Below, one piece after another: positions 18,379 to 30,895 of a DNA stretch of 64,000 nucleotides. The stretch is taken from positions 1,054,001 through 1,118,000 of the forward strand of contig NZ_JAERQG010000001.1 of assembly GCF_016734805.1 (NCBI RefSeq), given 5' to 3'. The notes under the pieces are model-generated. The model searched no databases. It was not told where the DNA came from and saw nothing but the letters and a program-made list of their open reading frames with translations. The translations under genes and the position numbers were made by a program. Origin of the DNA: Marivirga atlantica. Lineage in GTDB: Bacteria; Bacteroidota; Bacteroidia; Cytophagales; Cyclobacteriaceae. Each line of letters begins with the position of its first letter. Position 1 is the first letter of the stretch.

Positions 18379-20085
18379 TTATTTCACTATGATTTTTCTA
18401 CTGACATTGATGTGGTTAGCCTTTATTGAGATGTGATACATTCCAGTTTTAAGATCGGTAGTATCAACTATTAATTCGTTTTCTCCCTGAGTGATATTTT
18501 GAGTGCCTCTATGCATTACTTTCCCTGTTAAATCTATTAGCTCGTACTGAAGCTTACCGCTACTAATTGTTGTAATGGTAATGCTCGCTTTGTCGGAAGC
18601 TGGGTTAGGATAAGGCTGACCAACAGTATACCTGGAGTCAATAAAGGCAGTGTTTCCAGTTACTTTATCAGATACCATATTGACTTCTGGTAGTGTATTA
18701 CCATTGTCATCAGTAGCATTGAAGAAATCCTTGAAGAAAATATCTTGATTGATTACTGATTTCTCAACAGCAAACCAATCATGAAGAATACTTGCATAAA
18801 GCTGACGGTAATCAAACTGTAAATCAATGTTACTTTTGCTCATATCAGGATTTGTACCGAAGACTCCGGCATTTACTTTGTCACCAAAAGCCATTACGGC
18901 TCCACCCTTTCCGTGGTCAGTGCCATAGCTGCCGTTTGAAGGAATTCTTCTTCCAAATTCAGACATGGTGATTGTCAATACTTTGTCTGAAATTCCTCTG
19001 GCCTTCAAATCTTTTTGGAAAGCTTTTAAAGCTGCAGAGATATGATACATTTTTGTAGAATGTGTACCCATAGTTGAATCATACGACTCTACCTGTTGAG
19101 CATGCGTATCAAAACCACCAATTTTCACTAAGAAAACTTTAGTCTTGATCCCACCACCTAAAAGCCTGCTTACAAGTTTAAGTTGCCCACTCAAAGGGTT
19201 CCTTAAATTGCCGCTTGGTGCATTGAAGGGATAAACTTCAGGATACTCTACTGAGCTATCTGATGAAGCCTCATATATTTGCTGAAGTCTTCGAACATAG
19301 GTTTCTGACTTATCCTCCAAACCTAAAATCCAATCCATTTCTTTTTTGTAAGCGGAACCATTTAAAAATTCAGGCGGCAAACCTCTGGGGTCTATGCCCT
19401 CATCCCCGAAGCCTTCAAGGTTTTCAATTTGGTTAAGTAATCCTGCCGGGCTATTACCAAGTGAAATGGATGTAGGGATGTTTCCTTCCTGGTGAAAAAG
19501 TAAGGATGAATCATTACCCATTTCAAGCGCTAGCGGATCGGGCATATCGTTATTAGGGAAATCATCAGGATAGCTTTGAGGCGCATAAGTTTGTGCCAGA
19601 TATCTACCTATCCAGCCAGAGGAGTAATAATCCTCGAAATCACCACCCATAAACCAAATGTCTCTACCCCTAAAGTGAGAGCCGTTATTCTTTGGATAAG
19701 ATACACCTTGATAAACAGCTGCCTGACCATTGTCATACATTTCTTTAAAATCGAACATATCAGGGTGTAAACCCACCTGATCGGCAGAAGCCAAAGTGCT
19801 ATCAAGCGGAATTAACGTTCTGTTACCGCTTTTGTAAGGGATGGCAATATTGGCACGTCTGCTATAATAATGGTCGTAAGCCTCAATAGGGATGAAGCTG
19901 TTGATGCTGTCATTACCGCCATGCATTTGAAGAATAACCAACACATTATCATTGGTGCTATTGTGTACCAGGTTTTTCAATGGCTTATGTGACGAAAGCA
20001 ATTGCAGCGGGATGCCCTGAAATGCAATGGGTACTCCTGCCGCTAGCCCTAAATTTTTTAGAAAATTTCTTCTTTTCATCTTCAC
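18379..20085 (-). CDS. DUF1501 protein with Tat signal and T9SS C-terminal sorting domain
   Basis: This 568-residue protein begins with a twin-arginine signal (KRRNFLK at 4-10, then a hydrophobic stretch), is built around a DUF1501 domain (about 45-460, with QMHGGNDS, HPDM, GGFDTHAQQ, SEFGRR and DHGKGG, an arrangement related to alkaline-phosphatase-fold enzymes) and ends in a type A T9SS sorting domain (last 80 residues: PYPNPASD, YELIDLTGKV, LKTGMYHISI, final IIVK). It should be folded in the cytoplasm, pass through Tat, then be exported to the surface by T9SS. DUF1501 proteins are usually paired with DUF1800, here just 11 bases upstream. Substrate unknown. Confidence 0.9.
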   Translation of the reverse strand: MKMKRRNFLKNLGLAAGVPIAFQGIPLQLLSSHKPLKNLVHNSTNDNVLVILQMHGGNDSINSFIPIEAYDHYYSRRANIAIPYKSGNRTLIPLDSTLASADQVGLHPDMFDFKEMYDNGQAAVYQGVSYPKNNGSHFRGRDIWFMGGDFEDYYSSGWIGRYLAQTYAPQSYPDDFPNNDMPDPLALEMGNDSSLLFHQEGNIPTSISLGNSPAGLLNQIENLEGFGDEGIDPRGLPPEFLNGSAYKKEMDWILGLEDKSETYVRRLQQIYEASSDSSVEYPEVYPFNAPSGNLRNPLSGQLKLVSRLLGGGIKTKVFLVKIGGFDTHAQQVESYDSTMGTHSTKMYHISAALKAFQKDLKARGISDKVLTITMSEFGRRIPSNGSYGTDHGKGGAVMAFGDKVNAGVFGTNPDMSKSNIDLQFDYRQLYASILHDWFAVEKSVINQDIFFKDFFNATDDNGNTLPEVNMVSDKVTGNTAFIDSRYTVGQPYPNPASDKASITITTISSGKLQYELIDLTGKVMHRGTQNITQGENELIVDTTDLKTGMYHISIKANHINVSRKIIVK

Positions 20086-20096
20086 TGAGTTTTTGC

Positions 20097-21842
20097 TTAC
20101 ATCAATTGATATTCCGGTGATTGAAGTACTCCGTTGAATAAATCAAGCAATTGTCTACTTACTGTTTCCCTATCCACATTATTGGTCCATCTAAAATTCC
20201 AGGCTTCTTCAGGGTTCTCGTCTATAGCGAAAGTGTTTAGGAAGGCATCCAGGAAATATAGCAATCTTTCGTTCGTGAGTTCGCTGGAATTATCTTCAAA
20301 GGCAATGCTATTTGATAGGGGTAAGAAATGTCTGCAAACTTCTTCAACTAATAACCTGGCATTTGAAGCAATTGAGTCATCTATAAACTTTTCTACATAT
20401 TCAATGGGCGAAAGCATGTTGAGCTGTAGATCGTTCATCATATTAAAATTTAAATACTGAACGAAAGCATAGCGCTGCGTTAAATAAGTAGTGGTAATCC
20501 AGCTTCTATGGTATATAGGGAATTGATGGTAAGCCGAATAGCCAGCAACCTCATAAGGTTCGTAAAAGGCTAGTCCCATATCATCAATTCTGCTCAATAA
20601 TGTTCCTGAAGCTTCATAAAAAGCCTCATACTCATCTATATAATCAGGTAATTCTAACTCAAAACTTCTGGCTTGACCTATTACCAAATCAATGGGTGAC
20701 TTGATAATACTTCCATAGCTGTCATCGGTAACGCCCGCTGCACCTTCATAAAACTCTCTACTTGTAAAGAAAGCTTCAAGCACTGGTTGAATTCTGAAAT
20801 CATTATCTCTAAAAACTGTTGCCAAATCAGTTATAATGCCAGCCTGAACGCTCTCATTTATTTCATGATAGCCGAAAAAGCGATATAATTTTCTTGCAAT
20901 ATGTAAGCCCGTTTCAGTTTGGTCGAATATAATATCTACCAATTGCTGAATTTCATCTAAGGCACTTTCAGGGGTGGCATTACCATTTAATAGTAAGTCA
21001 GGATCAGGAGTAATGGTAGCATCTCCAAATCTATAGCTTAAAGTTTTAGGATCATTGTCGTGCTGATTAGCCGTTTGCCCATTACCCTTTACGCTTCCTG
21101 TTGGTAATTCAGTATCCGGATCAATATTGCTGAAAGTGTTATCAATATCAAAACCAGACATTACGCGTGCACCTTCTTGAACATCTTGCTCTGTAAAGGT
21201 TCCGTAATCTCCTTCGCCCTGACTGTCCTTATCAGCTCCTTCCAGCCCTCGCCCAATTGTATATAATTCCAGGAACTCGCGCGCATAGTTTTCATTGGGA
21301 TTGCCCTTTACATTGAGTCTACCATCCAGAAAACGCAGCATGGCGTTATCTACCGTAATTTTCTTACAGAGTGATTTAAAATTTAATTCCTCTTCCAGGT
21401 AGCTGTCAAAAGCAAATTTTCTGAATAGGGCATTCTGAAAGTATAACGCTCTGCTATTACCTACTACTGATTTCTTTGTCGTGAAATGCGTATGAAGAAA
21501 GAAAACTAATCTTTCTCTAAAAATGAACGCTAACTTTTGTTCTTCTGGTACCTTAGGAGCAAGGTATAAACCTAACTGCCACCTCAAAAAATAACTTTCT
21601 AATTCAAAACCTTCTGAGTTAGCATCTGTGGTTCCACTTTCAATCCATTCAGTTGCTGTAGCAGGATCAATCGGTAATTCAGGATCTGGCAATTCATCCA
21701 TAAATAATCTCTGGATGGCTTGCTGAGGTGTTAATGCGGCAAACTCATTAACGAGTGCAACTGTAGCACCAAAAACAGTACGTCTCAAAAGGTGTGAAGC
21801 TCTGTTAAATCCTAGAGGTTCTGTAAGTGGAGTTAAAGCCAT
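20097..21842 (-). CDS. DUF1800 family protein
   Basis: This 581-residue protein is the usual partner of DUF1501 proteins. The diagnostic start RASHLLRRTVFGAT, then RERLVFFLHTHFTT, LRFLDGRLNVKGNPNENYAREFLELYTIGRG and HIARKLYRFFGYHE are all present. No signal peptide is visible at the N-terminus, so it may be cytoplasmic, or travel with the Tat-dependent DUF1501 partner; this is inference. It is the first gene of a minus-strand operon of four (DUF1800, DUF1501, barrel, lipoprotein). The biochemical role of the pair is not established. Confidence 0.88.
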   Translation of the reverse strand: MALTPLTEPLGFNRASHLLRRTVFGATVALVNEFAALTPQQAIQRLFMDELPDPELPIDPATATEWIESGTTDANSEGFELESYFLRWQLGLYLAPKVPEEQKLAFIFRERLVFFLHTHFTTKKSVVGNSRALYFQNALFRKFAFDSYLEEELNFKSLCKKITVDNAMLRFLDGRLNVKGNPNENYAREFLELYTIGRGLEGADKDSQGEGDYGTFTEQDVQEGARVMSGFDIDNTFSNIDPDTELPTGSVKGNGQTANQHDNDPKTLSYRFGDATITPDPDLLLNGNATPESALDEIQQLVDIIFDQTETGLHIARKLYRFFGYHEINESVQAGIITDLATVFRDNDFRIQPVLEAFFTSREFYEGAAGVTDDSYGSIIKSPIDLVIGQARSFELELPDYIDEYEAFYEASGTLLSRIDDMGLAFYEPYEVAGYSAYHQFPIYHRSWITTTYLTQRYAFVQYLNFNMMNDLQLNMLSPIEYVEKFIDDSIASNARLLVEEVCRHFLPLSNSIAFEDNSSELTNERLLYFLDAFLNTFAIDENPEEAWNFRWTNNVDRETVSRQLLDLFNGVLQSPEYQLM

Positions 21843-21960
21843 AATTTACTGATTAGCATTGTTAAAAGTAGCAAGTTTTTATACAGAAGTAAATACTTAT
21901 CTATGATTATGTAATGTTTATCGAAAGATTGCAATTGTTTATAGAAGTGTTTAGTTCTTC

Positions 21961-21990
21961 TTGATTTGTGCTTTCTTTCTTCTAATTTTG
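21961..21990 (+). promoter_or_regulatory. Complete -33/-7 promoter, nearly leaderless
   Basis: TTG at 21961-21963, a 19-base spacer and TAATTTTG at 21983-21990 match the Bacteroidota promoter exactly. The ATG of the next gene starts 5 bases after the box, so the transcript is probably leaderless. Confidence 0.7.
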
Positions 21991-21995
21991 AAGAT

Positions 21996-22556
21996 ATGAG
22001 ACAATTTATAGCACTACTCGCCTTTATTTTAATTTTATCATCATGCCAAAAGGAAGATCCTAAGACCATCTACTTTGTAAGGCATGCTGAAAAAGATACT
22101 TTATACCCTAAGGACCCTGCACTTACTATTGAGGGAGTTATGCGTTCTGTTGATTTAGCCGCTTACTTTAAGCATATAAAAGTTGATACCATTTTTAGTT
22201 CAGACTACAAACGCACCAAAGAAACGGCTCAGCCCTTATCAGAAAAGCAAGGAGTAGGCATCGGTATTTATGATCCTATGGATTTTGAAAGCTTTGCTGA
22301 GAACTTAAAAAGTCTAAAAGCCGATACCATAGTAGTAGTAGGGCATAGCAATACGCTTTTGCCACAAATGGAAGCTTTAGGAGCTGAAAAGCCACAAGCT
22401 GAAATTACTGAGTTTGAATATAATAAGTTGTTTGAATTTCATTTGGTAGACAAATCAGTAATAACCCATACTTATGGTTCTAATGGAAAAGTTAAAAAAA
22501 GCAATAAGCTGATTAATACTAAATCAGATAAATCGAACATTTCTCCTGTCAATTAA
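21996..22556 (+). CDS. Histidine phosphatase family lipoprotein (SixA-like)
   Basis: This 186-residue protein has a lipoprotein signal with Cys17 (ILSSCQKE) and the histidine phosphatase (phosphoglycerate-mutase-like) motifs: FVRHAEK with catalytic H30 and R29, SSDYKRTKETA with R73, and VVVGHSNT with H117. It is short and SixA-like but membrane-anchored on the outside of the cytoplasm. Phospho-substrate unknown. The open frame extends to 21966, but the lipoprotein signal starts at 21996, which also fits the promoter. The next gene starts 10 bases later. Confidence 0.85.
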   Translation: MRQFIALLAFILILSSCQKEDPKTIYFVRHAEKDTLYPKDPALTIEGVMRSVDLAAYFKHIKVDTIFSSDYKRTKETAQPLSEKQGVGIGIYDPMDFESFAENLKSLKADTIVVVGHSNTLLPQMEALGAEKPQAEITEFEYNKLFEFHLVDKSVITHTYGSNGKVKKSNKLINTKSDKSNISPVN

Positions 22557-22566
22557 TTATTGATAG

Positions 22567-23007
22567 GTGCATTTACTACTCAAAACCAAGGTTGATCAAA
22601 ACTACCTCAAAGTTAAGGAAGGCTTTAACGAGGATTTATTTACCAGTCTTAACCCACCATTCCCACCAGTTGAACTTAAAGAGTTTGGTGGCAGTGAGGA
22701 GGGTGACATTGTTCACTTAAGGTTGAACTTTATCTTTTTCAAGCAGGACTGGATAAGTGAAATTACCTACGATAGAACCAATATAGAAATCTTTGAATTT
22801 ATTGATGAAGGTAAAAAGCTTCCCTTCTTTTTAAAGTACTGGAAACATCACCATAAAGTACTGAAGCTTGATAATAATACGTCAGAAATTGTTGATGACA
22901 TCACCTTTAAATCTCCTTTCAAGCTGATGGATTATCTTTTATATCCTGTACTTTGGCTACAGTTTGCTTACAGGAAACCTATTTATAGGAGGTTGTTCAA
23001 CCGATAA
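22567..23007 (+). CDS. SRPBCC-like (START-fold) ligand-binding protein
   Basis: This 146-residue protein starts at a GTG. The order of elements (VKEGFNEDLFTSLNPPFPPVEL, a beta stretch DIVHLRLNF, KQDWISEI, FEFIDEGKKLPFFLKYWKHHHKV, then DDITFKSPFKLMDYLLYPVLWLQFAYRKP) fits the helix-grip fold of the SRPBCC superfamily, as seen in a family of about 150 residues common in Bacteroidota. The last helix is long and aromatic and ends in basic residues. It likely binds a hydrophobic ligand. It sits 10 bases after the histidine phosphatase and is probably cotranscribed. No function is known to me. Confidence 0.7.
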   Translation: MHLLLKTKVDQNYLKVKEGFNEDLFTSLNPPFPPVELKEFGGSEEGDIVHLRLNFIFFKQDWISEITYDRTNIEIFEFIDEGKKLPFFLKYWKHHHKVLKLDNNTSEIVDDITFKSPFKLMDYLLYPVLWLQFAYRKPIYRRLFNR

Positions 23008-23122
23008 ATAGAGCCTTTCACAAAAAGATATCAGTTAATATAAAAATAATATACACCTAGCTTTTATTAGCGCCCATTTCTTGCTTGTTTTGTACCTTGT
23101 GGATTAAAAATTCCATTAAAGA

Positions 23123-23719
23123 ATGACAAAGCGATTCAACTTAGGAATATTTGCAATCTTATTCTCGATAATACTGTTTAGCTGTTCTGATCCCGAATGC
23201 TATGAATTCACCTCTGAGGATAATGAATGGTTCCCATATTCAGAGGGGGATACATTAATTTTTGGAAATAGTGAAGGAGATACGCTGACTCTTGTGGCGG
23301 ATGAGGTGTCTTTTATTTCACGCGATTTTAGGCCAAGTGTGGAATCATTCGATGAACTTTGCGTAAACACAAAAGTAATGACATTCCATAATATTCTAGG
23401 TAAAGGAAGAACTGAAAAGTTTCCATTCGAGTTGCACTATTATATTCAAAATGTAGGTGATCAATTTGCTGTAACATTTAGTGAAGTTATTTTTACGCCT
23501 AAAGGGGAAGAATATTATTTTGATAATGCTATCAATTTGAATTATAATTTTAATAATGGCTCAACAAAATCATTAATCGTTATTTCCGATTCAACATTAC
23601 TTAATATACCACGACCAGAGTTTACAGTCTTCCGATATGGTTTCGATAAATCTGGAGTTAAAATATTCAATTTAGGTTTAGACCCGGACGCAACGTTTGA
23701 ACTTATAGAACAGAAGTAG
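23123..23719 (+). CDS. Lipoprotein of unknown function
   Basis: I do not recognise the family. The 198-residue protein has a lipoprotein signal (Cys21 in ILFSCSDPEC) and a beta-rich body (YSEGDTLIFGNSEGDTLTLV, FPFELHYYIQNV, FAVTFSEVIF, SLIVISDS, FTVFRYGFDKSGVKIF) resembling other small Bacteroidota lipoproteins with one Ig- or lipocalin-like domain. It stands alone: 115 bases after the previous gene and followed by strong hairpins. Two further Cys (C25 and one in the middle) could form a disulfide. Confidence 0.65.
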   Translation: MTKRFNLGIFAILFSIILFSCSDPECYEFTSEDNEWFPYSEGDTLIFGNSEGDTLTLVADEVSFISRDFRPSVESFDELCVNTKVMTFHNILGKGRTEKFPFELHYYIQNVGDQFAVTFSEVIFTPKGEEYYFDNAINLNYNFNNGSTKSLIVISDSTLLNIPRPEFTVFRYGFDKSGVKIFNLGLDPDATFELIEQK

Positions 23720-23742
23720 AATAAAAGCAAATTCTGATTATT

Positions 23743-23777
23743 AAAGCACGTGTACAATTCACGTGCTTTTTTATTTT
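23743..23777 (+). terminator. Intrinsic terminator after the orphan lipoprotein
   Basis: GCACGTG and CACGTGC (23746-23752 with 23760-23766) form a perfect stem around a seven-base loop, extended by AAA/TTT, and are followed by TTTTTTATTTT. First of three hairpins in this gap. Confidence 0.85.
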
Positions 23778-23787
23778 ACTACTAACG

Positions 23788-23802
23788 CGAGTTTAAAACT
23801 CG
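23788..23802. repeat. Palindromic element between two terminators
   Basis: CGAGTTT and AAACTCG form a perfect seven-base inverted repeat around a single A. It has no T-run and sits exactly between two terminator hairpins. It could be a REP-like element; I cannot tell if it recurs in the genome. Confidence 0.5.
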
Positions 23803-23810
23803 TGCTACAA

Positions 23811-23847
23811 CAAACCTCAATGTTCTTACATTGAGGTTTGTTTTTTT
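23811..23847 (+). terminator. Strong second terminator hairpin
   Basis: A perfect twelve-base-pair stem (23811-23822 with 23829-23840) around a six-base loop is followed by seven T. It isolates the operon starting at 23930 from upstream transcription. Confidence 0.88.
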
Positions 23848-23929
23848 ACCCAATCAAATCACTAATCCTTTCCCGCCACATTCCGTTCATTAGTTTGCGA
23901 ATAGCTCGATTTGCAACTAAATTCATTCC

Positions 23930-25318
23930 ATGGAACTATCAACTGCTCAACTCAAATGTATAGGTGAATTCTCAGAAGTACCCGATGACCAACTCCAATG
24001 GCTTATCGATCATTCTGAACTAAAGTTTTTAGAAGTAGGAGATACTATTTTCTCAAGAGGTGATCCTATTGATAAAATGTTCATTGTGTTAGAAGGTAAA
24101 GCTTATATCAAAATCAATCAGAATGGCAATTACAAACACCTAGCTACTATTGAAGCCAAAAATATTACAGGTTTGTTGCCTTACTCCAGAGCAAGTTCAG
24201 CTATTGGAATTGCCGAGGTGGTAGAACGAAGCAAAGTGTTAATTACACCAAAAGAGCAGATCCTTGAATTGGCCACCAAACACTATGAATTAACTGAGGC
24301 ATTGGTGCACGTGATGACCAACCGAACACGAGAGTTTGCCAAACAGAATGTACAATCAGAGAAAATGATGGCGCTTGGTAAACTTTCAGCGGGCTTGGCT
24401 CATGAGTTGAATAATCCGGTCTCAGCGATTTCACGCAGTGCGTTAGAGTTGCAAAAGCAAATGCATCACACACCAGAAAAGTTTAAACGCATCATGGAGC
24501 TTAAGCTTAACTCAGATCAAACGGATAAAATCAACAGCATTCTTTCAGAAAAAATCAATCATAAACCTACTGACCAGATGAGCCTTCTGGAAAGGAGTGA
24601 GGCTGAAGAGGAACTGGAGGATTGGCTTAGCAAAAAAAACATTGACAGAGCTTATGAGCTAACAGAAACACTGCTTGAATATGGTTTCGACCTTAGCAAC
24701 CTGGAAGAGGTTTGCAACATTGCCGGCAAGGACAATTTCCAAACAGTACTTACATGGATAGAGAATAGCTTAAGCACAGAAAAAATAGTCGTTGAAATTC
24801 AGGAAGCTTCTGAAAGAGTTGATAATCTGGTGAAATCAATCAAAAGCTTTACTCATATGGATCAAAGTCCGGAAGCTCAGCCAACCGATTTGATCAAAGG
24901 TATTAATGATACGCTCACCATTCTTAACCATAAGCTGAAAACTAAATCGATCAGTGTTGATAGAGATTTCGAAACAGATTTACCGAAAGCCAAAGTGGTG
25001 ATTGGAGAAATCAATCAGGTTTGGACAAATATCATTGATAATGCCATTGATGCGATGGAGCAAAATGGACAGCTTAAAATTAGAATTTTCGAAGAGTCAG
25101 GTTGTATCTATGTTAAAATAACTGATGATGGCGAAGGTATTTCAGAAGAAAATCTGAATAAGATTTTTGATCCTTTTTTTACCACAAAAGCAATTGGCAA
25201 AGGTGTAGGTATGGGGCTGGAGTTGGTACAAAGAATCGTTAATCAACATAATGGTAAAATATCGGTTGAATCTAAGAAAGGAGAAACCACATTTACGATA
25301 GGCTTGCCACTGGCCTAA
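23930..25318 (+). CDS. Cyclic-nucleotide-binding-type sensor histidine kinase
   Basis: This 462-residue soluble kinase (no membrane segment) begins with a cNMP-binding-type beta-roll (about 10-130, with VGDTIFSRGDPIDKMFIVLEG), followed by the phospho-acceptor helix KLSAGLAHELNNP (H158), a long helical insert (about 175-270) and an ATP-binding domain with TNIIDNAIDAM, TDDGEGIS, FDPFFTTK and GVGMGLELV. The cNMP pocket keeps an SRASSA segment but lacks the FGE glutamate that contacts ribose in cAMP receptors, so the ligand may not be cAMP. The next gene, 17 bases on, has a receiver domain and is the likely phosphorylation target. First gene of a three-gene unit. Confidence 0.88.
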   Translation: MELSTAQLKCIGEFSEVPDDQLQWLIDHSELKFLEVGDTIFSRGDPIDKMFIVLEGKAYIKINQNGNYKHLATIEAKNITGLLPYSRASSAIGIAEVVERSKVLITPKEQILELATKHYELTEALVHVMTNRTREFAKQNVQSEKMMALGKLSAGLAHELNNPVSAISRSALELQKQMHHTPEKFKRIMELKLNSDQTDKINSILSEKINHKPTDQMSLLERSEAEEELEDWLSKKNIDRAYELTETLLEYGFDLSNLEEVCNIAGKDNFQTVLTWIENSLSTEKIVVEIQEASERVDNLVKSIKSFTHMDQSPEAQPTDLIKGINDTLTILNHKLKTKSISVDRDFETDLPKAKVVIGEINQVWTNIIDNAIDAMEQNGQLKIRIFEESGCIYVKITDDGEGISEENLNKIFDPFFTTKAIGKGVGMGLELVQRIVNQHNGKISVESKKGETTFTIGLPLA

Positions 25319-25335
25319 AACTGCAACGAAAAAAC

Positions 25336-27000
25336 ATGAAAAAACCAATCATATTTGTTTTAGATGACGATGCGCAAGTCCTAAAAGCTGTCACGCGCGA
25401 TTTAAAATCTAAATTTCAGGAATCCTATCGGATACTCAGCACAACAAGTCCCCATGATGCTATTGAGGCTGTGGAGGGATTGCTCAAGAAGAACGAAGTA
25501 ATAGCACTTTATTTGGTTGATCAGCGCATGCCCGAAATGTTAGGAGTTGATTTCCTTAAAAAGGTAAATACTTTCTTCCCTGAAGCCAAGAAGGTTTTGC
25601 TAACGGCTTATTCTGATACCGAGGCCGCTATAAAAGCCATTAATGAAGTGCAGCTCGATTATTATTTAAATAAACCCTGGAGCCCCCCTGAAGAGAGACT
25701 TTTCCCTGTACTGGAAGATTTACTGGGTGCGTGGCAAGCGCAATATATTCCAGAATTTGAAGGACTTAGTGTGATCGGTTATCAATATGCTCCTTATTCG
25801 CACGAAATTAAAGATTTCCTGGCCAGTAACTTATTTCCCTTTCAATGGCTCGATGTGGAGACTAGTGAAAAGGCACAGCAATTGGTGGAACTACACAAAT
25901 TAGAGGCTAAAGATCTGCCTGTGGTGTCTTTTGGAGATGGGGAATGCATGAGTCGGCCAACCACTATAGAATTGGCTAAAAGATTAGGACTTAATGCCGA
26001 AACCAAGGATGACTTATATGATGTCACTATCATTGGAGCAGGTCCTTCAGGATTGGCAGCTGCAGTTTACGGAGGTTCAGAAGGCCTGAAAACTTTATTG
26101 ATCGAGAAACATTCTCCCGGAGGCCAGGCAGGAAAAAGCTCAAGAATCGAAAATTATTTGGGCTTTCCCAATGGATTAAGCGGTCAGGATTTAACACACA
26201 GAGCTATCACTCAGGCTAAAAGATTTGGTATAGAGTTTCTTTCACCGAGAGAGGTAGTTTCATTACATACTAAAGACAATTATAAAATCCTTAAAATGAA
26301 TGATGGGGCTGAAATTAAGTCCAAAAGTATCATCATCTCAACAGGTGTGAATTATAAAAAACTTCCTGCCCCTGGCGTAGAAGATTTCACCGGAGCAGGA
26401 GTTTATTACGGTTCATCCATGACCGAAGCACAGGCTTGCAGGAATAAAGAAGTCTATATTGTGGGTGGAGGCAACTCGGCAGGTCAGTCGGCTATTTATC
26501 TTTCCAAATTTGCCAAAAATGTTTACATCGTCATCAGAAAGCCTGACCTCACAAGCAGTATGTCTTCTTATCTTATTGATCAGATTAATACAGTAAGCAA
26601 TATTCAAGTGGTGGCTAATACAGAAATCACTAAGGTTGAAGGAGAAAATGAGCGTCTAAGCTGTGTTGAATTAACGGATGTTGTGTCAGATGATAAACGG
26701 AAATCACCTGCTAATGCCTTGTTCATTTTCATTGGCTCAAAACCTTATACTGAATGGATAATGGATGAGGTGCTACAAGATGAAAAAGGCTTTTTGAAGA
26801 CTGGAAAAGATTTACAAAACGATGAGCACTTTAAAGCTAAATGGAAAATAAAAAGAGATCCTTATCTTTTGGAAACCTCAAGCCCTGGTATTTTTGCATC
26901 TGGTGATGTGCGCTCGGGCGCTATGAATAGAGTAGCTTCTGCAGTGGGGGAAGGATCAATGGCTATTAAATTTGTGCATCAATATTTAAACGAAGTGTAG
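25336..27000 (+). CDS. Response regulator fused to thioredoxin-reductase-like flavoprotein lacking CxxC
   Basis: This 554-residue protein has a receiver domain (1-130, D62 in LYLVDQRMPEM, K113), a Cys-less thioredoxin/glutaredoxin-like middle part (about 140-220, ending LPVVSFGDGECMSRPT) and a TrxB-type FAD/NAD(P)H oxidoreductase domain (about 226-554; FAD motif IGAGPSGLAAAVYG, nucleotide motif VGGGNSAGQSA, FAD motif IFASGDVRSG). Where TrxB has CATC, the sequence is YYGSSMTEAQAC (357-368), leaving one Cys, so it cannot perform dithiol chemistry as TrxB does. It is probably a phosphorylation-controlled NAD(P)H flavin enzyme. It lies 4 bases before the zinc finger gene. Confidence 0.88.
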   Translation: MKKPIIFVLDDDAQVLKAVTRDLKSKFQESYRILSTTSPHDAIEAVEGLLKKNEVIALYLVDQRMPEMLGVDFLKKVNTFFPEAKKVLLTAYSDTEAAIKAINEVQLDYYLNKPWSPPEERLFPVLEDLLGAWQAQYIPEFEGLSVIGYQYAPYSHEIKDFLASNLFPFQWLDVETSEKAQQLVELHKLEAKDLPVVSFGDGECMSRPTTIELAKRLGLNAETKDDLYDVTIIGAGPSGLAAAVYGGSEGLKTLLIEKHSPGGQAGKSSRIENYLGFPNGLSGQDLTHRAITQAKRFGIEFLSPREVVSLHTKDNYKILKMNDGAEIKSKSIIISTGVNYKKLPAPGVEDFTGAGVYYGSSMTEAQACRNKEVYIVGGGNSAGQSAIYLSKFAKNVYIVIRKPDLTSSMSSYLIDQINTVSNIQVVANTEITKVEGENERLSCVELTDVVSDDKRKSPANALFIFIGSKPYTEWIMDEVLQDEKGFLKTGKDLQNDEHFKAKWKIKRDPYLLETSSPGIFASGDVRSGAMNRVASAVGEGSMAIKFVHQYLNEV

Positions 27001-27004
27001 TAGT

Positions 27005-27286
27005 ATGGCTTTAAAAGAAAAAGTTTGTGATCATCTGAAGGAGTTTGACCCAGGCAATAAGAAAAACGCTGAAAGTTATGAATGTGCAGAATGTGTGAAA
27101 TCAGGAGACATGTGGGTGCATCTACGTACTTGTCAGCAATGTGGCATTACACTTTGTTGTGATTCATCACCAAATCAACATGCCAGTAAGCATGCTAAGG
27201 CACATCAGCACCCTGTAATCACTTCTGCTGAACCTGGAGAAAACTGGGCATGGTGCTATGAACATCTTAACTTCTTAAAGTTTTAG
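27005..27286 (+). CDS. UBP-type zinc finger protein
   Basis: This 93-residue protein is a single ZnF-UBP domain. Candidate zinc ligands are visible as C8/H10, C27/C30, C43/C46, C51, H59, H63, H67 and C84 with the signature LRTCQQCGITLCCDSS and HxxxH elements. In eukaryotes this domain binds the free C-terminus of ubiquitin; bacteria lack ubiquitin, so its ligand here is unknown, possibly a C-terminal tail of a partner protein. It starts 4 bases after the flavoprotein stop and is clearly in the same operon, suggesting it is an output or adaptor for that signalling enzyme. Confidence 0.9.
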   Translation: MALKEKVCDHLKEFDPGNKKNAESYECAECVKSGDMWVHLRTCQQCGITLCCDSSPNQHASKHAKAHQHPVITSAEPGENWAWCYEHLNFLKF

Positions 27287-27354
27287 TATAGTAGAAGTTT
27301 GATGTTTTCGAGTAATCAAATAAAATACAGGACTATTTTTTGAATGAATGGAGG

Positions 27355-27382
27355 TTGATAAAAATTATATTGGTTAATTTTG
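27355..27382 (+). promoter_or_regulatory. -33/-7 promoter for the gene at 27404
   Basis: TTG at 27355-27357, a 17-base spacer and TAATTTTG at 27375-27382 match the Bacteroidota promoter. The start codon follows 21 bases later. Confidence 0.65.
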
Positions 27383-27403
27383 CCCCCTTAAAATCAACCT
27401 TTT

Positions 27404-28711
27404 ATGCGCCATTTATTTTTACTGCTTTGCCTGGCAGTTAGTAATGAACTTTTTTCTGCAGCTACAGTACTTGTTGAAGTTGAACACCAAGAAAATGTTA
27501 AGATTTCCCTAAAGGATGCCGCCTTGGGTGATTACTTAACCTATCAACCAATTTTCGACTTTCCTGAAAAAACCACTTTCGGACTGGATGATGGCAGTTT
27601 TACTCTCCTAGAGGTTGTGGTGGATGGTGAACCATATTTGCTTTATGTTAAGGGTAGTTATATCACCATTGATCTTAAAAATTCTAAAATAAAGAGTGAT
27701 GCCTTTTTTCTTTTTAATCGTAAGAAGGACTTTTTTGAAACCAATGTAAATGGGAAGTGGCTACTTCATCTGTTTGAAATAGAAAAGTATTATAAAAATC
27801 AATTAACTACTATTGATAGTCTAATTCAAGTTGATAATGCTTATGGCTATCAGGAAAATGGTGTTAAATACTGGGATAAACGTTCAGCAAAAAAGCTACT
27901 CAACTATATTGACAAGCATTACAGTAACGGGCAGGACTTCAAACTGAAATATAATAGTCCTTCATTCATAAAATTTTCAGAACTGCTTTATTCATTGGCC
28001 TTTCAATATTCTGAGAAAGATATAAGTAGAACCCTCAGCATTGAAGAGCAATATGAACTTATCAAAAATACAATGCCTGAAGGTATGGTTCAGGCTGTTC
28101 AATTATATCATTTTTTTAGACCATCCGCACCCTTAGTGGTTATGGAGTCTGCAAATACTGTTGATGATTTTAAAGTTTTAGATAATCGTGTGAAGTTTGC
28201 TGCTCAGAAATCCATAGAACTTAAAAAGGCCAATATGTTACCTTCTGAATCAACTGAAATTAATTGGGTAGTTGGTTTCGATGTAGATGAATCTTTAAAT
28301 GCTTTCTTTTCAAAACGTGACTATAAGAAACCTGCAATCATCGTTTTCTGGACCACTTTTGGGGGTGCCATGGATTATGAATATCATCACTTAAAACAAT
28401 TGCAATCCACATTTGGTGATTATTTCGATTTCATATACGTATGTGTGAATGCTTTTGAACAAGAGCAAAAGGCAAAGGCAATTATAAGAAGGGAGGGTTT
28501 GAGTGGTAATCATCTTTTTCCTAAAAGTGCGGATGCTTTTTGGAAGAGTGAGTGGAAGGACAAAAGGATTTCTACACTGCCTTTCTATGTCATAACAGAT
28601 GCCAATGAAGAAGTTGTTCTAGCTGTTGAAACCCCTTTAGATTTTAATGAACGTATTCAGGCTCAAATGAAACTTATTAAAAAGAATAAAAAGACTGGAC
28701 TGACTAATTGA
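27404..28711 (+). CDS. Secreted protein with C-terminal thioredoxin-like domain lacking active-site Cys
   Basis: This 435-residue exported protein has a signal peptide (about 1-19). Residues about 20-100 are a beta domain, 105-290 are mostly helical, and the last 140 residues have a thioredoxin fold of the TlpA type: AIIVFWTTFGGAMDYEYHHLKQL, then FDFIYVCVN, the cis-Pro region STLPFYVITDANEEVV. The CxxC is replaced by TFGG, so it is not an oxidoreductase. The layout matches periplasmic TlpA-like proteins of Bacteroidota that also carry an N-terminal domain. Monocistronic, with its own promoter and a terminator. Confidence 0.78.
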   Translation: MRHLFLLLCLAVSNELFSAATVLVEVEHQENVKISLKDAALGDYLTYQPIFDFPEKTTFGLDDGSFTLLEVVVDGEPYLLYVKGSYITIDLKNSKIKSDAFFLFNRKKDFFETNVNGKWLLHLFEIEKYYKNQLTTIDSLIQVDNAYGYQENGVKYWDKRSAKKLLNYIDKHYSNGQDFKLKYNSPSFIKFSELLYSLAFQYSEKDISRTLSIEEQYELIKNTMPEGMVQAVQLYHFFRPSAPLVVMESANTVDDFKVLDNRVKFAAQKSIELKKANMLPSESTEINWVVGFDVDESLNAFFSKRDYKKPAIIVFWTTFGGAMDYEYHHLKQLQSTFGDYFDFIYVCVNAFEQEQKAKAIIRREGLSGNHLFPKSADAFWKSEWKDKRISTLPFYVITDANEEVVLAVETPLDFNERIQAQMKLIKKNKKTGLTN

Positions 28712-28770
28712 TCGAATCTACTTCATATCTCTAAGCCGTTACTTAATAAACTTTTATTGCATTCCATAAA

Positions 28771-28800
28771 AAAAGGGACCATCTGGTCCCTTTTCCTTTT
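28771..28800. terminator. Bidirectional terminator between convergent genes
   Basis: AAAAGGGACC and GGTCCCTTTT (28771-28780 with 28785-28794) pair perfectly around a four-base loop; A-rich sequence lies before and T-rich after, so it can end both the gene at 27404 (plus) and ftsH (minus). Confidence 0.85.
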
Positions 28801-28816
28801 ATAATTATTTAGACGA

Positions 28817-30895
28817 TCAAGCCTTTTCCGAATCATCTTTTGATTCTGAAACTGCTTCACCTTCTAAGTCTTTGTTTTCACTTTCTTTTTTCTCCTCTTC
28901 TTTTTTCTTGGAAGCATCAGCATGGCTTTTGGCATTGGTGAAAGCTTCATAAGTAGTCTGCGTATCAAAAGGTCTTTTACCAATTAATCGCTCAAGATCA
29001 GACTGGAAGAGTATTTCTTTCTCAAGAAGCTCTTGCGCAAGAGTCTCAAGCTCATTCTGCTTATCGCTAAGTAACTGCTTGGTTCTTTCATAAGCTGCAT
29101 CAATCAGCTTTCTTACTTCCTGATCAATGGTGTTAGCTGTCGCCTCAGAATATGGTTTAGTGAATTTATAATCACCACCGTCTTTAGAATCGTAGAATGA
29201 AACATTACCAATTTTATCATTCATACCGTAAACACTTACAATACTGTAAGCCATTTTGGTAATTCGTTCTAAATCACTCAAGGCACCTGTTGAAATTTTG
29301 CCAAAAGTTAATTCCTCTGCAGCTCTACCACCTAATGCCATGCACATTTCATCCATCAGCTGCTCTGTCTGATAAAGAAACTGCTCTTTTGGTAAATACT
29401 GTGCATACCCTAATGCAGCTACTCCTCTTGGTACAATACTTACTTTCACCAAAGGATCAGCATGCTCCAAGAACCAGCCTGCTACTGCGTGACCAGCCTC
29501 ATGGTAAGCAACAATTTTTTTCTCATCAGGAGAGATAATCTTATTTTTCTTCTCAAGTCCACCAATTACCCTATCAATGGCATCATGGAAATCCTGCATT
29601 TCAATTGCCTTTTTATTTCTTCTGGCAGCTATAAGTGCTGCTTCATTACAAACATTAGCAATCTCTGCACCAGCAAAACCTGGTGTTTGTGCGGCAAGCT
29701 TTTTAGAATCTACACTTTGTGTATCAACCTTTAATGGTTTCAAGTGCACTTTAAAAATAGCCTCTCTACCGATAATGTCGGGTTTATCAATGCTGATTTG
29801 TCTATCAAAACGACCTGGTCTCATTAAGGCTGAGTCTAGTACGTCAGGTCTGTTGGTTGCCGCTAAAATGATTACTCCTGAATCAGTTGAGAAGCCATCC
29901 ATTTCCACTAAAAGAGAGTTTAAGGTATTCTCTCTTTCATCATTTGAGCCTGGCATTTTACCCCCACCTCGTGATCTACCAATTGCATCAATTTCATCAA
30001 TAAATACGATACAAGGAGCTTTCTCTTTTGCTTGCTTAAACAAATCTCTTACTCTGGCAGCACCAACACCCACAAACATTTCCACGAAATCAGAACCTGA
30101 AAGTGAGAAAAATGGAACACCTGCTTCACCAGCAACGGCTTTGGCTAATAAAGTTTTACCAGTACCCGGAGGGCCTACTAATAACGCACCTTTAGGAATT
30201 TTACCCCCAAGGGTAGTGAACTTTGAAGGATTCTTTAAGAATTCAACAATTTCTGCTACTTCTTCTTTTGCTTCATCAAGTCCGGCAACATCCTTAAAAG
30301 TGATTTTAACCTTGTTTTCAGCATCAAATAGCGCAGCCTTTGATTTACCAATATTAAAGATTTGACCTCCAGGACCACCCTGTCCAGTCATTCTTCGCAT
30401 CAAGAACCAAACACCAAATAAGAGGAATATTAAGAAACCATAGTTCAGCAACATGTCTGACCATTGGGTTCTTTCTTCAACCTCATAACCAATTCGCTTA
30501 TCGTCTGAAACCTGAGCTTCTAGTTCTTGAAAATTTTTGTTAAAAATTTCAAGGTTTGGAACTTTGAAACTGTAATGAGGTCCTGATTTGTAATTCCAGG
30601 GATTACCTTGACTTTCAAGCTCGTTGATGTATTTAGAGTTGTTTAGCGCTTCATCTTTGAGATAAACTTCAACTAAGCTCTGATTCTTTAATAGAACCAC
30701 CTTCTTCACATCATTGCTCATGTACATTCTCTCAAATCTCTTTTCAGAAATTTGAATAGTGTTATTGCTTCCACTTAGTAATGAGATTCCAAAAACGACT
30801 GAAACTAATATGATGATAACCCAAACCTGATAATTAGGCTTTTGTGGCGGCTTAGGTATGATTTTCTTTTTATTACTTTTTGGTTTTTCTGCCAT
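28817..30895 (-). CDS. ftsH: ATP-dependent zinc metalloprotease FtsH
   Basis: This 692-residue membrane protease degrades misfolded membrane proteins and regulatory proteins. It shows two membrane segments (about 23-42 and 150-167) around a periplasmic domain, a AAA domain (Walker A GPPGTGKT 241-248, Walker [12 protein letters not shown] with ATNRPDVLD and RPGRFDR) and an M41 peptidase domain with HEAGH at 465-469. The C-terminal 45 residues are a highly charged Lys/Glu tail. It is slightly longer than E. coli FtsH (644). It lies 71 bases after rsfS on the same strand. Confidence 0.97.

What the first reader, a model, noticed from the sequence alone, without database searches (positions are those of the whole stretch)
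23930..27286. Three-gene signalling unit: cNMP-type kinase, receiver fused to a Cys-less TrxB-like flavoprotein, and a UBP zinc finger
Seen: three same-strand genes spaced 17 and 4 bases, isolated upstream by two strong terminators. The kinase has a cNMP-type sensor without the FGE glutamate. The second protein joins a receiver (D62) to a TrxB-type FAD/NAD(P)H enzyme that lacks the CxxC (one Cys at 368). The third is a single ZnF-UBP domain, a ubiquitin-tail reader in eukaryotes, in a bacterium without ubiquitin. Known: each domain family. Inferred: a phosphorelay that controls a flavin enzyme, with the zinc finger as adaptor or target reader, perhaps for redox or peptide-tail signals. I know of no described function for the set.
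Basis: partly seen in the sequence, partly recalled or inferred. Interest (0 to 1): 0.8.

Follow-up and report, generated by a model that had tools for sequence, protein, structure and literature searches.

The report
Phosphorelay-linked flavoprotein with zinc-finger partner
Three neighbouring bacterial genes (a soluble sensor kinase, a receiver fused to a flavin enzyme that has lost its thiol chemistry, and a ubiquitin-type zinc finger) form a widespread conserved unit of unknown function that may couple the cell's redox state to ion balance across the membrane.

Summary
Three co-directional genes lie at 23930-27286, spaced 17 and 4 bases, behind two terminator-like hairpins: a soluble cNMP-fold histidine kinase, a receiver/TrxB-like flavoprotein without CxxC, and a lone zf-UBP. 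Two parts were missed: a Cys-less glutaredoxin-like domain between receiver and flavoprotein, and a conserved helical insert in the kinase's phosphotransfer hairpin. The flavoprotein has three cysteines, not one; C368 is not conserved.

The neighbourhood is conserved across phyla. Kinase and receiver-flavoprotein lie within 3 kb in 44 of 47 fetched Bacteroidota loci and adjoin in 37 of 42 named loci. Of 36 zf-UBP genomes in a 395-genome Bacteroidota sample, 33 hold the flavoprotein family; the other three hold zf-UBP near or fused to a cation/proton antiporter. The triad recurs in several gene orders. zf-UBP is also the C-terminal domain of antiporters in Bacteroidota, Deinococcota and Actinomycetota.

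Best reading: a cytoplasmic phosphorelay controls a non-dithiol flavoprotein, with zf-UBP as docking partner, most likely to tune cation/proton antiport under redox or electrophile stress, by analogy with KefF-KefC. The module is well supported; the antiporter target is inferred, and none was found beside the window's own copy. No functional description appeared in the paper listings seen.

The parts
23743..23769 (+). terminator-like hairpin, 10 pairs
23809..23842 (+). terminator-like hairpin, 15 pairs, then T run
23930..25318 (+). soluble histidine kinase, 462 aa; no transmembrane segment (highest 19-residue Kyte-Doolittle mean 0.86)
24026..24280 (+). cNMP-fold sensor domain (residues 33-117) without the FGE motif
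24401..24403 (+). codon of H158, the H-box histidine, invariant in 26 aligned kinases
24470..24736 (+). helical insert (about residues 181-269) between the two helices of the phosphotransfer hairpin, conserved across phyla
   Evidence: AlphaFold2 model; alignment
25010..25312 (+). HATPase_c catalytic domain (residues 361-461)
25336..27000 (+). receiver / glutaredoxin-like / TrxB-like flavoprotein, 554 aa
25351..25689 (+). receiver domain (residues 6-118); D62 codon at 25519-25521, T90, K113
25762..25989 (+). Cys-less glutaredoxin-fold domain (about residues 143-218), near-invariant P195 and P208; YAPYS (151-155) where a glutaredoxin has its Cys motif
26017..26994 (+). TrxB-like FAD/NAD(P)H domain (residues 228-553) with the conserved replacement YYGAAxTEA in place of CxxC
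26437..26439 (+). codon of C368, present in 65 of 97 family members, so not conserved
27005..27286 (+). stand-alone zf-UBP zinc finger, 93 aa, bacterial type (CCDSS, WCY)

Best explanation
The three genes form one cytoplasmic signalling unit. Its fixed core is the glutaredoxin-like/TrxB-like flavoprotein, with zf-UBP as a recurrent partner; the input domain varies (receiver plus cNMP-fold kinase here, a cNMP domain fused directly in other members, none in a few). Proposed steps: (1) the cNMP-fold sensor of the soluble kinase reads a cytoplasmic ligand, probably not cAMP; (2) H158 passes phosphate to D62 of the receiver; (3) phosphorylation changes the conformation of a flavoprotein that binds FAD and NAD(P)H but cannot do dithiol exchange, so it acts as a redox- and phosphate-gated switch, or as a reductase of small electrophiles; (4) the zinc finger docks the flavoprotein on a target, most likely a cation/proton antiporter or other K+/H+ system, and gates it, much as KefF acts on KefC. 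Shown by sequence: the parts, the domains, the lost cysteines, the conserved neighbourhood, the zinc finger-antiporter fusions. Inferred: cofactor binding, phosphotransfer, ligand, flavin chemistry, docking and target.
For: Kinase within 3 kb of the receiver-flavoprotein in 44 of 47 Bacteroidota loci (gap of 400 bases or less in 40), adjoining in 37 of 42 named loci; zinc finger in the cluster in 20 of 47 and 14 of 42. Co-occurrence: 33 of 36 zf-UBP genomes against 20 of 359 others in Bacteroidota; 31 of 45 against 14 of 153 in Actinomycetota; 34 of 41 genomes chosen for the receiver-flavoprotein hold zf-UBP. Six gene orders keep the linkage. zf-UBP adjoins bare cores in L118, L165, L167 and L170 and cNMP-type cores in L048, L173, L174 and L200. 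Antiporter link: a Kef-type gene in 18 of the 20 zinc-finger clusters (all outside the window's class), zf-UBP fused to Na_H_Exchanger-TrkA_N proteins in L056, L058, L059, L063, L112 and L120, and to Na_H_Exchanger without TrkA_N in L222, L223 and L226. L065 is a compact run glyoxalase-like, esterase, Kef-type, DsbA-like, zf-UBP, kinase, receiver-flavoprotein. Precedents: KefF, a quinone reductase whose catalysis is not directly required to activate KefC (PMC10224563, passages); unphosphorylated PtsN binds and inhibits the antiporter YcgO (PMC11808508, abstract).
Against: No antiporter is among the seven neighbours of the window's unit that I scanned (18379-30895; three have no Pfam hit), nor in the triads of the window's order, L040 and L042. 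A Kef-type protein of the window's genome is unlinked and lacks zf-UBP. Kef- and CPA1-type queries hit none of 80 named loci (flanks up to 8 kb, some shorter). 14 of the 18 antiporter-bearing clusters come from one unnamed family (f36), so they are not independent. Six of nine long Actinomycetota frames with zf-UBP matched zf-UBP alone. 14 of 45 Actinomycetota zf-UBP genomes lack the flavoprotein. 27 of 47 receiver-flavoprotein loci have no zf-UBP in the cluster, and L089 and L092 keep the rest of the operon without it, so it is not obligatory. Nothing measures phosphotransfer, binding or flux.
Confidence: 0.42

Rival explanations
1. The flavoprotein is the end of the pathway: phosphorylation switches on an NAD(P)H-dependent reductase of small electrophiles (quinones, for instance) or of an electron carrier such as ferredoxin or flavodoxin, and the zinc finger is a structural or electron-path partner. 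Antiporters are separate clients of the same zinc finger family.
For: Glycine-rich FAD and NAD(P)H motifs are invariant; the loss of CxxC together with a TrxB-like fold resembles TrxR-type ferredoxin-NADP reductases (type recalled), and ferredoxin-NADP reductases appear in the solved-structure list. Detoxification genes sit beside some copies: an esterase and a weakly catechol-dioxygenase-like gene in L065, S-(hydroxymethyl)mycothiol dehydrogenase in L114.
Against: Does not explain the recurrent zf-UBP-antiporter fusions nor the three zf-UBP genomes with an antiporter but no flavoprotein match.
Confidence: 0.33
2. The zinc finger reads a C-terminal peptide tail, as eukaryotic ZnF-UBP domains read the ubiquitin tail, and recruits tagged proteins to the flavoprotein.
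For: Same family (Pfam); the W-C-Y element at 83-85 is kept in many members, C84 in 90% or more.
Against: The pocket arginine of the HDAC6 zinc finger (role recalled) aligns with S54. The invariant bacterial signature C51-C52-D53-x-S55 around it differs. Fusion to antiporters points to docking within fixed complexes.
Confidence: 0.08
3. A thiol enzyme that works through C368 or another lone cysteine.
For: C368 is present in 65 of 97 members.
Against: It is replaced by F, Y, T, I, S or A in the rest; no member of 97 has CxxC at the TrxB site (two have a CxxC elsewhere); C204 and C443 are not conserved.
Confidence: 0.04
4. A chance or merely historical gene cluster without joint function.
For: zf-UBP is missing from many copies of the pair and lies apart from the flavoprotein in 10 of 36 zf-UBP Bacteroidota genomes.
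Against: Linkage survives reordering in three phyla (Bacteroidota, Actinomycetota, one cyanobacterium), with overlapping genes in some, and genome-level co-occurrence is strong in two phyla.
Confidence: 0.05

Closest known systems
REC-thioredoxin reductase response regulators ('Mycobacterium-like combination', PMC5847659, passages read)
   Same: Same receiver plus TrxB-like architecture; named loci here include Mycolicibacterium and Mycobacterium.
   Different: The two passages read give only the architecture; kinase partner, glutaredoxin-like domain, loss of CxxC, zf-UBP and antiporter links are added here.
Thioredoxin reductase TrxB / AhpF
   Same: Fold and cofactor motifs; Foldseek best hits are AhpF 4o5q and TrxRs; AhpF likewise joins an N-terminal Trx-fold part to a TrxR-like part (recalled).
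   Different: No CxxC in either the glutaredoxin-like or the TrxB-like domain; TIGR01292 scores 236 against a cut-off of 343.
Bacterial zf-UBP protein of PDB 2ida
   Same: Matches residues 24-86 of the zinc finger, E 3e-20.
   Different: Deposited as 'hypothetical protein'; no function stated.
KefF-KefC glutathione-gated K+ efflux system
   Same: A soluble quinone reductase (a flavoprotein, recalled; handled with FMN in PMC11150392, passages) governs the antiporter, and its catalysis is not directly required for activation (PMC10224563, passages).
   Different: KefF is a subunit of about 20 kDa; no receiver, kinase or zf-UBP is mentioned in the passages seen. No antiporter was found beside the window's unit.
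PtsN-YcgO phosphorelay control of a CPA1 antiporter
   Same: A phosphorelay protein binds the C-terminal region of an antiporter according to its phosphorylation state (PMC11808508, abstract and outline).
   Different: PTS proteins; no flavoprotein or zinc finger in what was read.

Membership tests
Two-component system | H-box histidine, catalytic ATPase domain, receiver aspartate with acidic pair, T and K | tested here: met
   H158 invariant in 26 kinases; HATPase_c above cut-off; of 97 aligned flavoproteins, some without a receiver, D62 in 83 (gap in 10, another residue in 4), T90 in 84, K113 in 85
Two-component system | Phosphotransfer between the pair | not testable with these tools
   needs biochemistry
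Thioredoxin reductase | Redox-active CxxC in the NAD(P)H domain | tested here: not met
   0 of 97 members have CxxC at the site; Y358 in 97 of 97
Thioredoxin reductase | Score above the curated cut-off of TIGR01292 | tested here: not met
   236.4 against 343.45 bits
Glutaredoxin | Order of strands and helices b-a-b-a-b-b-a, with the cis-Pro position (recalled) | tested here: met
   AlphaFold2 elements E144-148 H153-164 E169-173 H178-186 E196-198 E204-206 H210-216; P195 in 96 of 97; Pfam PF00462 E 0.014, below its cut-off; no structure search of this domain alone was run
Glutaredoxin | Catalytic Cys motif | tested here: not met
   YAPYS at 151-155 faces WCPLT of the glutaredoxin domain of the L066 antiporter; at residue 152, the Cys position, 91 of 97 have S and none has C
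ZnF-UBP | Pfam zf-UBP above cut-off with the zinc-ligand Cys/His pattern | tested here: met
   39.7 against 22.7 bits; C27 C30 C43 C46 C51 C52 H59 H63 H69 invariant in 25 sequences; which of them bind zinc was not tested
ZnF-UBP, ubiquitin-tail reader | Pocket arginine (recalled) | tested here: not met
   aligned with S54
cNMP receptor | Phosphate-binding cassette with FGE | tested here: not met
   no FGE in the window protein; G-x-L-P-[YF]-S-R stands there in all 8 Bacteroidota kinases aligned and in L134, while L131, L139 and L164 keep FGE
Kef-type K+ efflux system | CPA2 antiporter with TrkA_N in the same operon | tested here: not met
   none among the window neighbours scanned; present in relatives

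The most novel reading that the evidence does not exclude
A widespread, undescribed class of phosphorelay in which a receiver- or ligand-gated, thiol-less glutaredoxin/TrxR-like flavoprotein reports the NAD(P)H or electrophile state and, through a bacterial ZnF-UBP used as a docking module, gates cation/proton antiporters of more than one family. The ancestral bacterial use of ZnF-UBP would then be antiporter and flavoprotein docking, not ubiquitin reading.
Probability: 0.33. Interest if true: 0.85.

Novelty: new variant of a known kind. Interest (0 to 1): 0.62.

Why it matters
It gives a testable function to two annotation-only families (bacterial zf-UBP, and receiver- or cNMP-fused 'thioredoxin reductases') found in several phyla. 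It shows that many proteins named thioredoxin reductase cannot be one. It also suggests that cation/proton antiport may be governed by a phosphorelay and a redox cofactor, a parallel to KefF-KefC and PtsN-YcgO built from different parts.

Tried and rejected
A thiol mechanism through C368 was rejected by conservation. Ubiquitin-like tail reading was disfavoured by the alignment with HDAC6. A universal antiporter neighbour was not found: the Kef-type queries and the Kef- and CPA1-type queries hit none of 80 named loci. A hidden zf-UBP in the 27 Bacteroidota clusters without one was sought with relaxed tblastn (E up to 0.01): no hit in 27; repeated with a control, 5 of 5 loci with a known zf-UBP were hit and again 0 of 27. 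Foldseek on the kinase model returned ordinary histidine kinases in the 50 rows shown and did not identify the helical insert. Paper searches showed no paper on the set, judged by title and start of abstract. 28, 56 and 83 returned nothing; 55 and 84 one paper each on another subject; 12, 76 and 77 found 6,842, 186 and 558 papers, of which only the first 20, 15 and 15 were seen. Of these only PMC5847659 was opened. The library holds open-licence papers only.
Full report
What is there. The kinase has no transmembrane segment by hydropathy and so should sense a cytoplasmic signal. Its cNMP-fold domain lacks FGE; all 8 Bacteroidota kinases aligned, and L134, share a G-x-L-P-[YF]-S-R stretch there, while three of 26 (L131, L139, L164) keep FGE. 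H158 is invariant in the 26. The AlphaFold2 model (26 sequences, mean pLDDT 84.4, pTM 0.50) places a helical insert of about 90 residues between the two helices of the phosphotransfer hairpin; E226, W232, L233 and A245 are nearly invariant in it and W276 just after it is invariant. This would explain the truncated HisKA hit.

The second protein has three domains, not two. The model (42 sequences, mean pLDDT 87.8) shows a receiver (1-136), a b-a-b-a-b-b-a domain (144-216) and a TrxR-like domain (228-553). The middle domain matches Pfam Glutaredoxin only weakly (E 0.014, below cut-off; its counterpart from L115 gave no match), but it aligns with the glutaredoxin domain at the end of the L066 antiporter, YAPYS facing WCPLT (E 0.005 in a three-protein comparison). 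At the Cys position (residue 152) 91 of 97 members have S and none has C; P195 is present in 96 of 97 and P208 in 95. The TrxB-like domain lacks CxxC in 97 of 97 and carries the replacement YYGAAxTEA (consensus). Two of the 97 (L139, L164) have a CxxC elsewhere. C368 is present in 65. The 97 are 55 Bacteroidota sequences and 42 of alignment A3, receiver-less members included. The protein is therefore not a thioredoxin reductase (TIGR01292 236 against 343 bits). The HRR-type NADPH clamp of TrxR (recalled) also differs, IRKPDL against HRRDHL in 4zn0, so NADH is possible.

The third protein is a bacterial-type zf-UBP, closest in the PDB to 2ida (E 3e-20). The Cys/His pattern and the W-x-H-L-R and C-C-D-x-S elements are invariant in 25 sequences. 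The arginine of the eukaryotic pocket is not kept (role recalled).

Is the unit real? In a 395-genome Bacteroidota sample that includes the window's own genome, 36 genomes have zf-UBP above cut-off, two more only below it, and 53 have the flavoprotein family at E <= 1e-100 (only the first few candidates per genome are scored, so these are lower bounds). I classed 48 of the 53 as receiver-type and 5 as lacking a receiver. 33 of the 36 are among the 53, against 20 of the other 359 (Fisher p 9e-31, counted by hand from the two lists; relatedness not corrected). The remaining three have zf-UBP beside (G322), one gene from (G080) or fused to (G122) a Na_H_Exchanger-TrkA_N protein. I fetched the receiver-type loci of all 47 genomes other than the window's: kinase within 3 kb in 44, gap of 400 bases or less in 40; zf-UBP in the cluster in 20, same strand in all 20; Kef-type gene in 21, of which 18 also have zf-UBP. 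'Kef-type' here is a BLAST cluster; 7 of the 21 were checked by Pfam and all 7 have Na_H_Exchanger and TrkA_N. Of the 36 zf-UBP genomes, 21 (window included) have it in the cluster, 2 beside a flavoprotein without receiver (L047 bare, L048 cNMP type), 3 with an antiporter only, and 10 apart from the flavoprotein. Among near relatives the set is sparse: 5 of 39 genomes have a relative of this zf-UBP, the window's included, and none of the nine others of its genus.

41 of the 42 genomes could be searched (L130 is not held); 34 of 41 hold zf-UBP somewhere. In 198 Actinomycetota genomes, 31 of 45 zf-UBP genomes have the flavoprotein family against 14 of 153 others (p 5e-15), and in 12 genomes the two lie within 3 kb; 14 of the 45 lack it. 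Orders seen: kinase-receiver-zf (window, L036, L122), zf-kinase-receiver (L065), receiver-kinase-zf (L113, L114, L133), antiporter/zf fusion-kinase-receiver (L058), receiver-fusion-kinase (L056, L063), receiver-antiporter-zf-kinase (L066). Linkage kept through reordering argues for joint function. Of the 38 loci of the scan without a receiver, 11 have zf-UBP within the locus; of the five with a bare core, three (L165, L167, L170) have it directly downstream, as has the plasmid core L118. L048, L173 and L200 carry a cNMP domain above cut-off and L174 one just below, each with zf-UBP adjoining. So the zinc finger's partner is more likely the core than the receiver or kinase.

What does it act on? 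zf-UBP is the C-terminal domain of Na_H_Exchanger-TrkA_N proteins in Bacteroidota (L056, L058, L059, L063) and Deinococcus (L112, L120), and of Na_H_Exchanger proteins without TrkA_N in Tsukamurella, Nocardia and Antrihabitans genomes (L222, L223, L226). Against this, six of the nine long Actinomycetota frames scanned matched zf-UBP alone, and these came from 32 regions that I chose among the matches. NCBIfam places the L063 protein nearest KefC, below cut-off. In L065 the unit is the end of a compact run: glyoxalase-like (weakly catechol-dioxygenase-like), esterase, Kef-type antiporter, DsbA-like, zf-UBP, kinase, receiver-flavoprotein. Known Kef systems protect against electrophiles and need an oxidoreductase subunit for full activity whose catalysis is not directly required (PMC10224563, passages), and RCK domains hold KefC shut until, it is proposed, they detach (PMC11150392, passages). 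A phosphorelay protein, PtsN, binds an antiporter's C-terminal region (PMC11808508, abstract and outline). I therefore favour control of cation/proton antiport as the output, at 0.42.

Against this: no antiporter was found among the scanned neighbours of the window's copy or in the triads L040 and L042; 14 of the 18 linked cases are in one unnamed family (f36), with four elsewhere (L056, L058, L063, L066); and antiporter queries found nothing near 80 named loci. The window's genome has an unlinked Na_H_Exchanger-TrkA_N-TrkA_C protein without zf-UBP; its other TrkA_N matches were not examined. A reductase output remains nearly as likely.

Known or new? The receiver-TrxB architecture is in print as a domain combination (PMC5847659), and NCBI annotation carries names such as UBP-type zinc finger domain-containing protein and cyclic nucleotide-binding domain-containing thioredoxin-disulfide reductase. 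I found no description of the three-part unit, of its thiol-less nature or of the antiporter link in what searches showed, three of them capped lists, in open-licence papers only.

Noticed in passing
window 24470-24736: Conserved helical insert of about 90 residues inside the kinase's phosphotransfer hairpin, shared across phyla and without a Pfam match.
   Followed up: partly
L066:8216-10594: Kef-type antiporter ending in a glutaredoxin domain with a single-Cys motif (WCPLT), beside a separate zf-UBP, kinase and receiver-flavoprotein.
   Followed up: partly
L065:7993-8547, and the stretches of L089 and L092 printed: DsbA-like protein between antiporter and zf-UBP or kinase, with a one-Cys CPYS motif (read by eye in L089 and L092 only).
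   Followed up: no
L089, L092: zf-UBP is missing while antiporter, DsbA-like, kinase and receiver-flavoprotein genes remain.
   Followed up: yes
L119:7201-8289: Gene annotated as cyclic nucleotide-gated ion channel next to zf-UBP plus FAD oxidoreductase in Rhizobium leguminosarum.
   Followed up: no
L115, L116, L133: Low temperature requirement protein A (LtrA) or a relative near the pair or triad in Deinococcus and cyanobacteria.
   Followed up: no
L113, L143, L146, L151, L171: Universal stress protein gene upstream of the unit in Streptomyces.
   Followed up: no
L130:12237-15146, L154:9650-12559: Two tandem kinases of this family near (L130) or beside (L154) one receiver-flavoprotein.
   Followed up: no
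G446 (genome of L138): Eight zf-UBP matches in one Pseudonocardia metagenome-assembled genome.
   Followed up: no
window 18379-21842: Neighbouring DUF1501 (with a C-terminal sorting domain) and DUF1800 genes on the minus strand.
   Followed up: no
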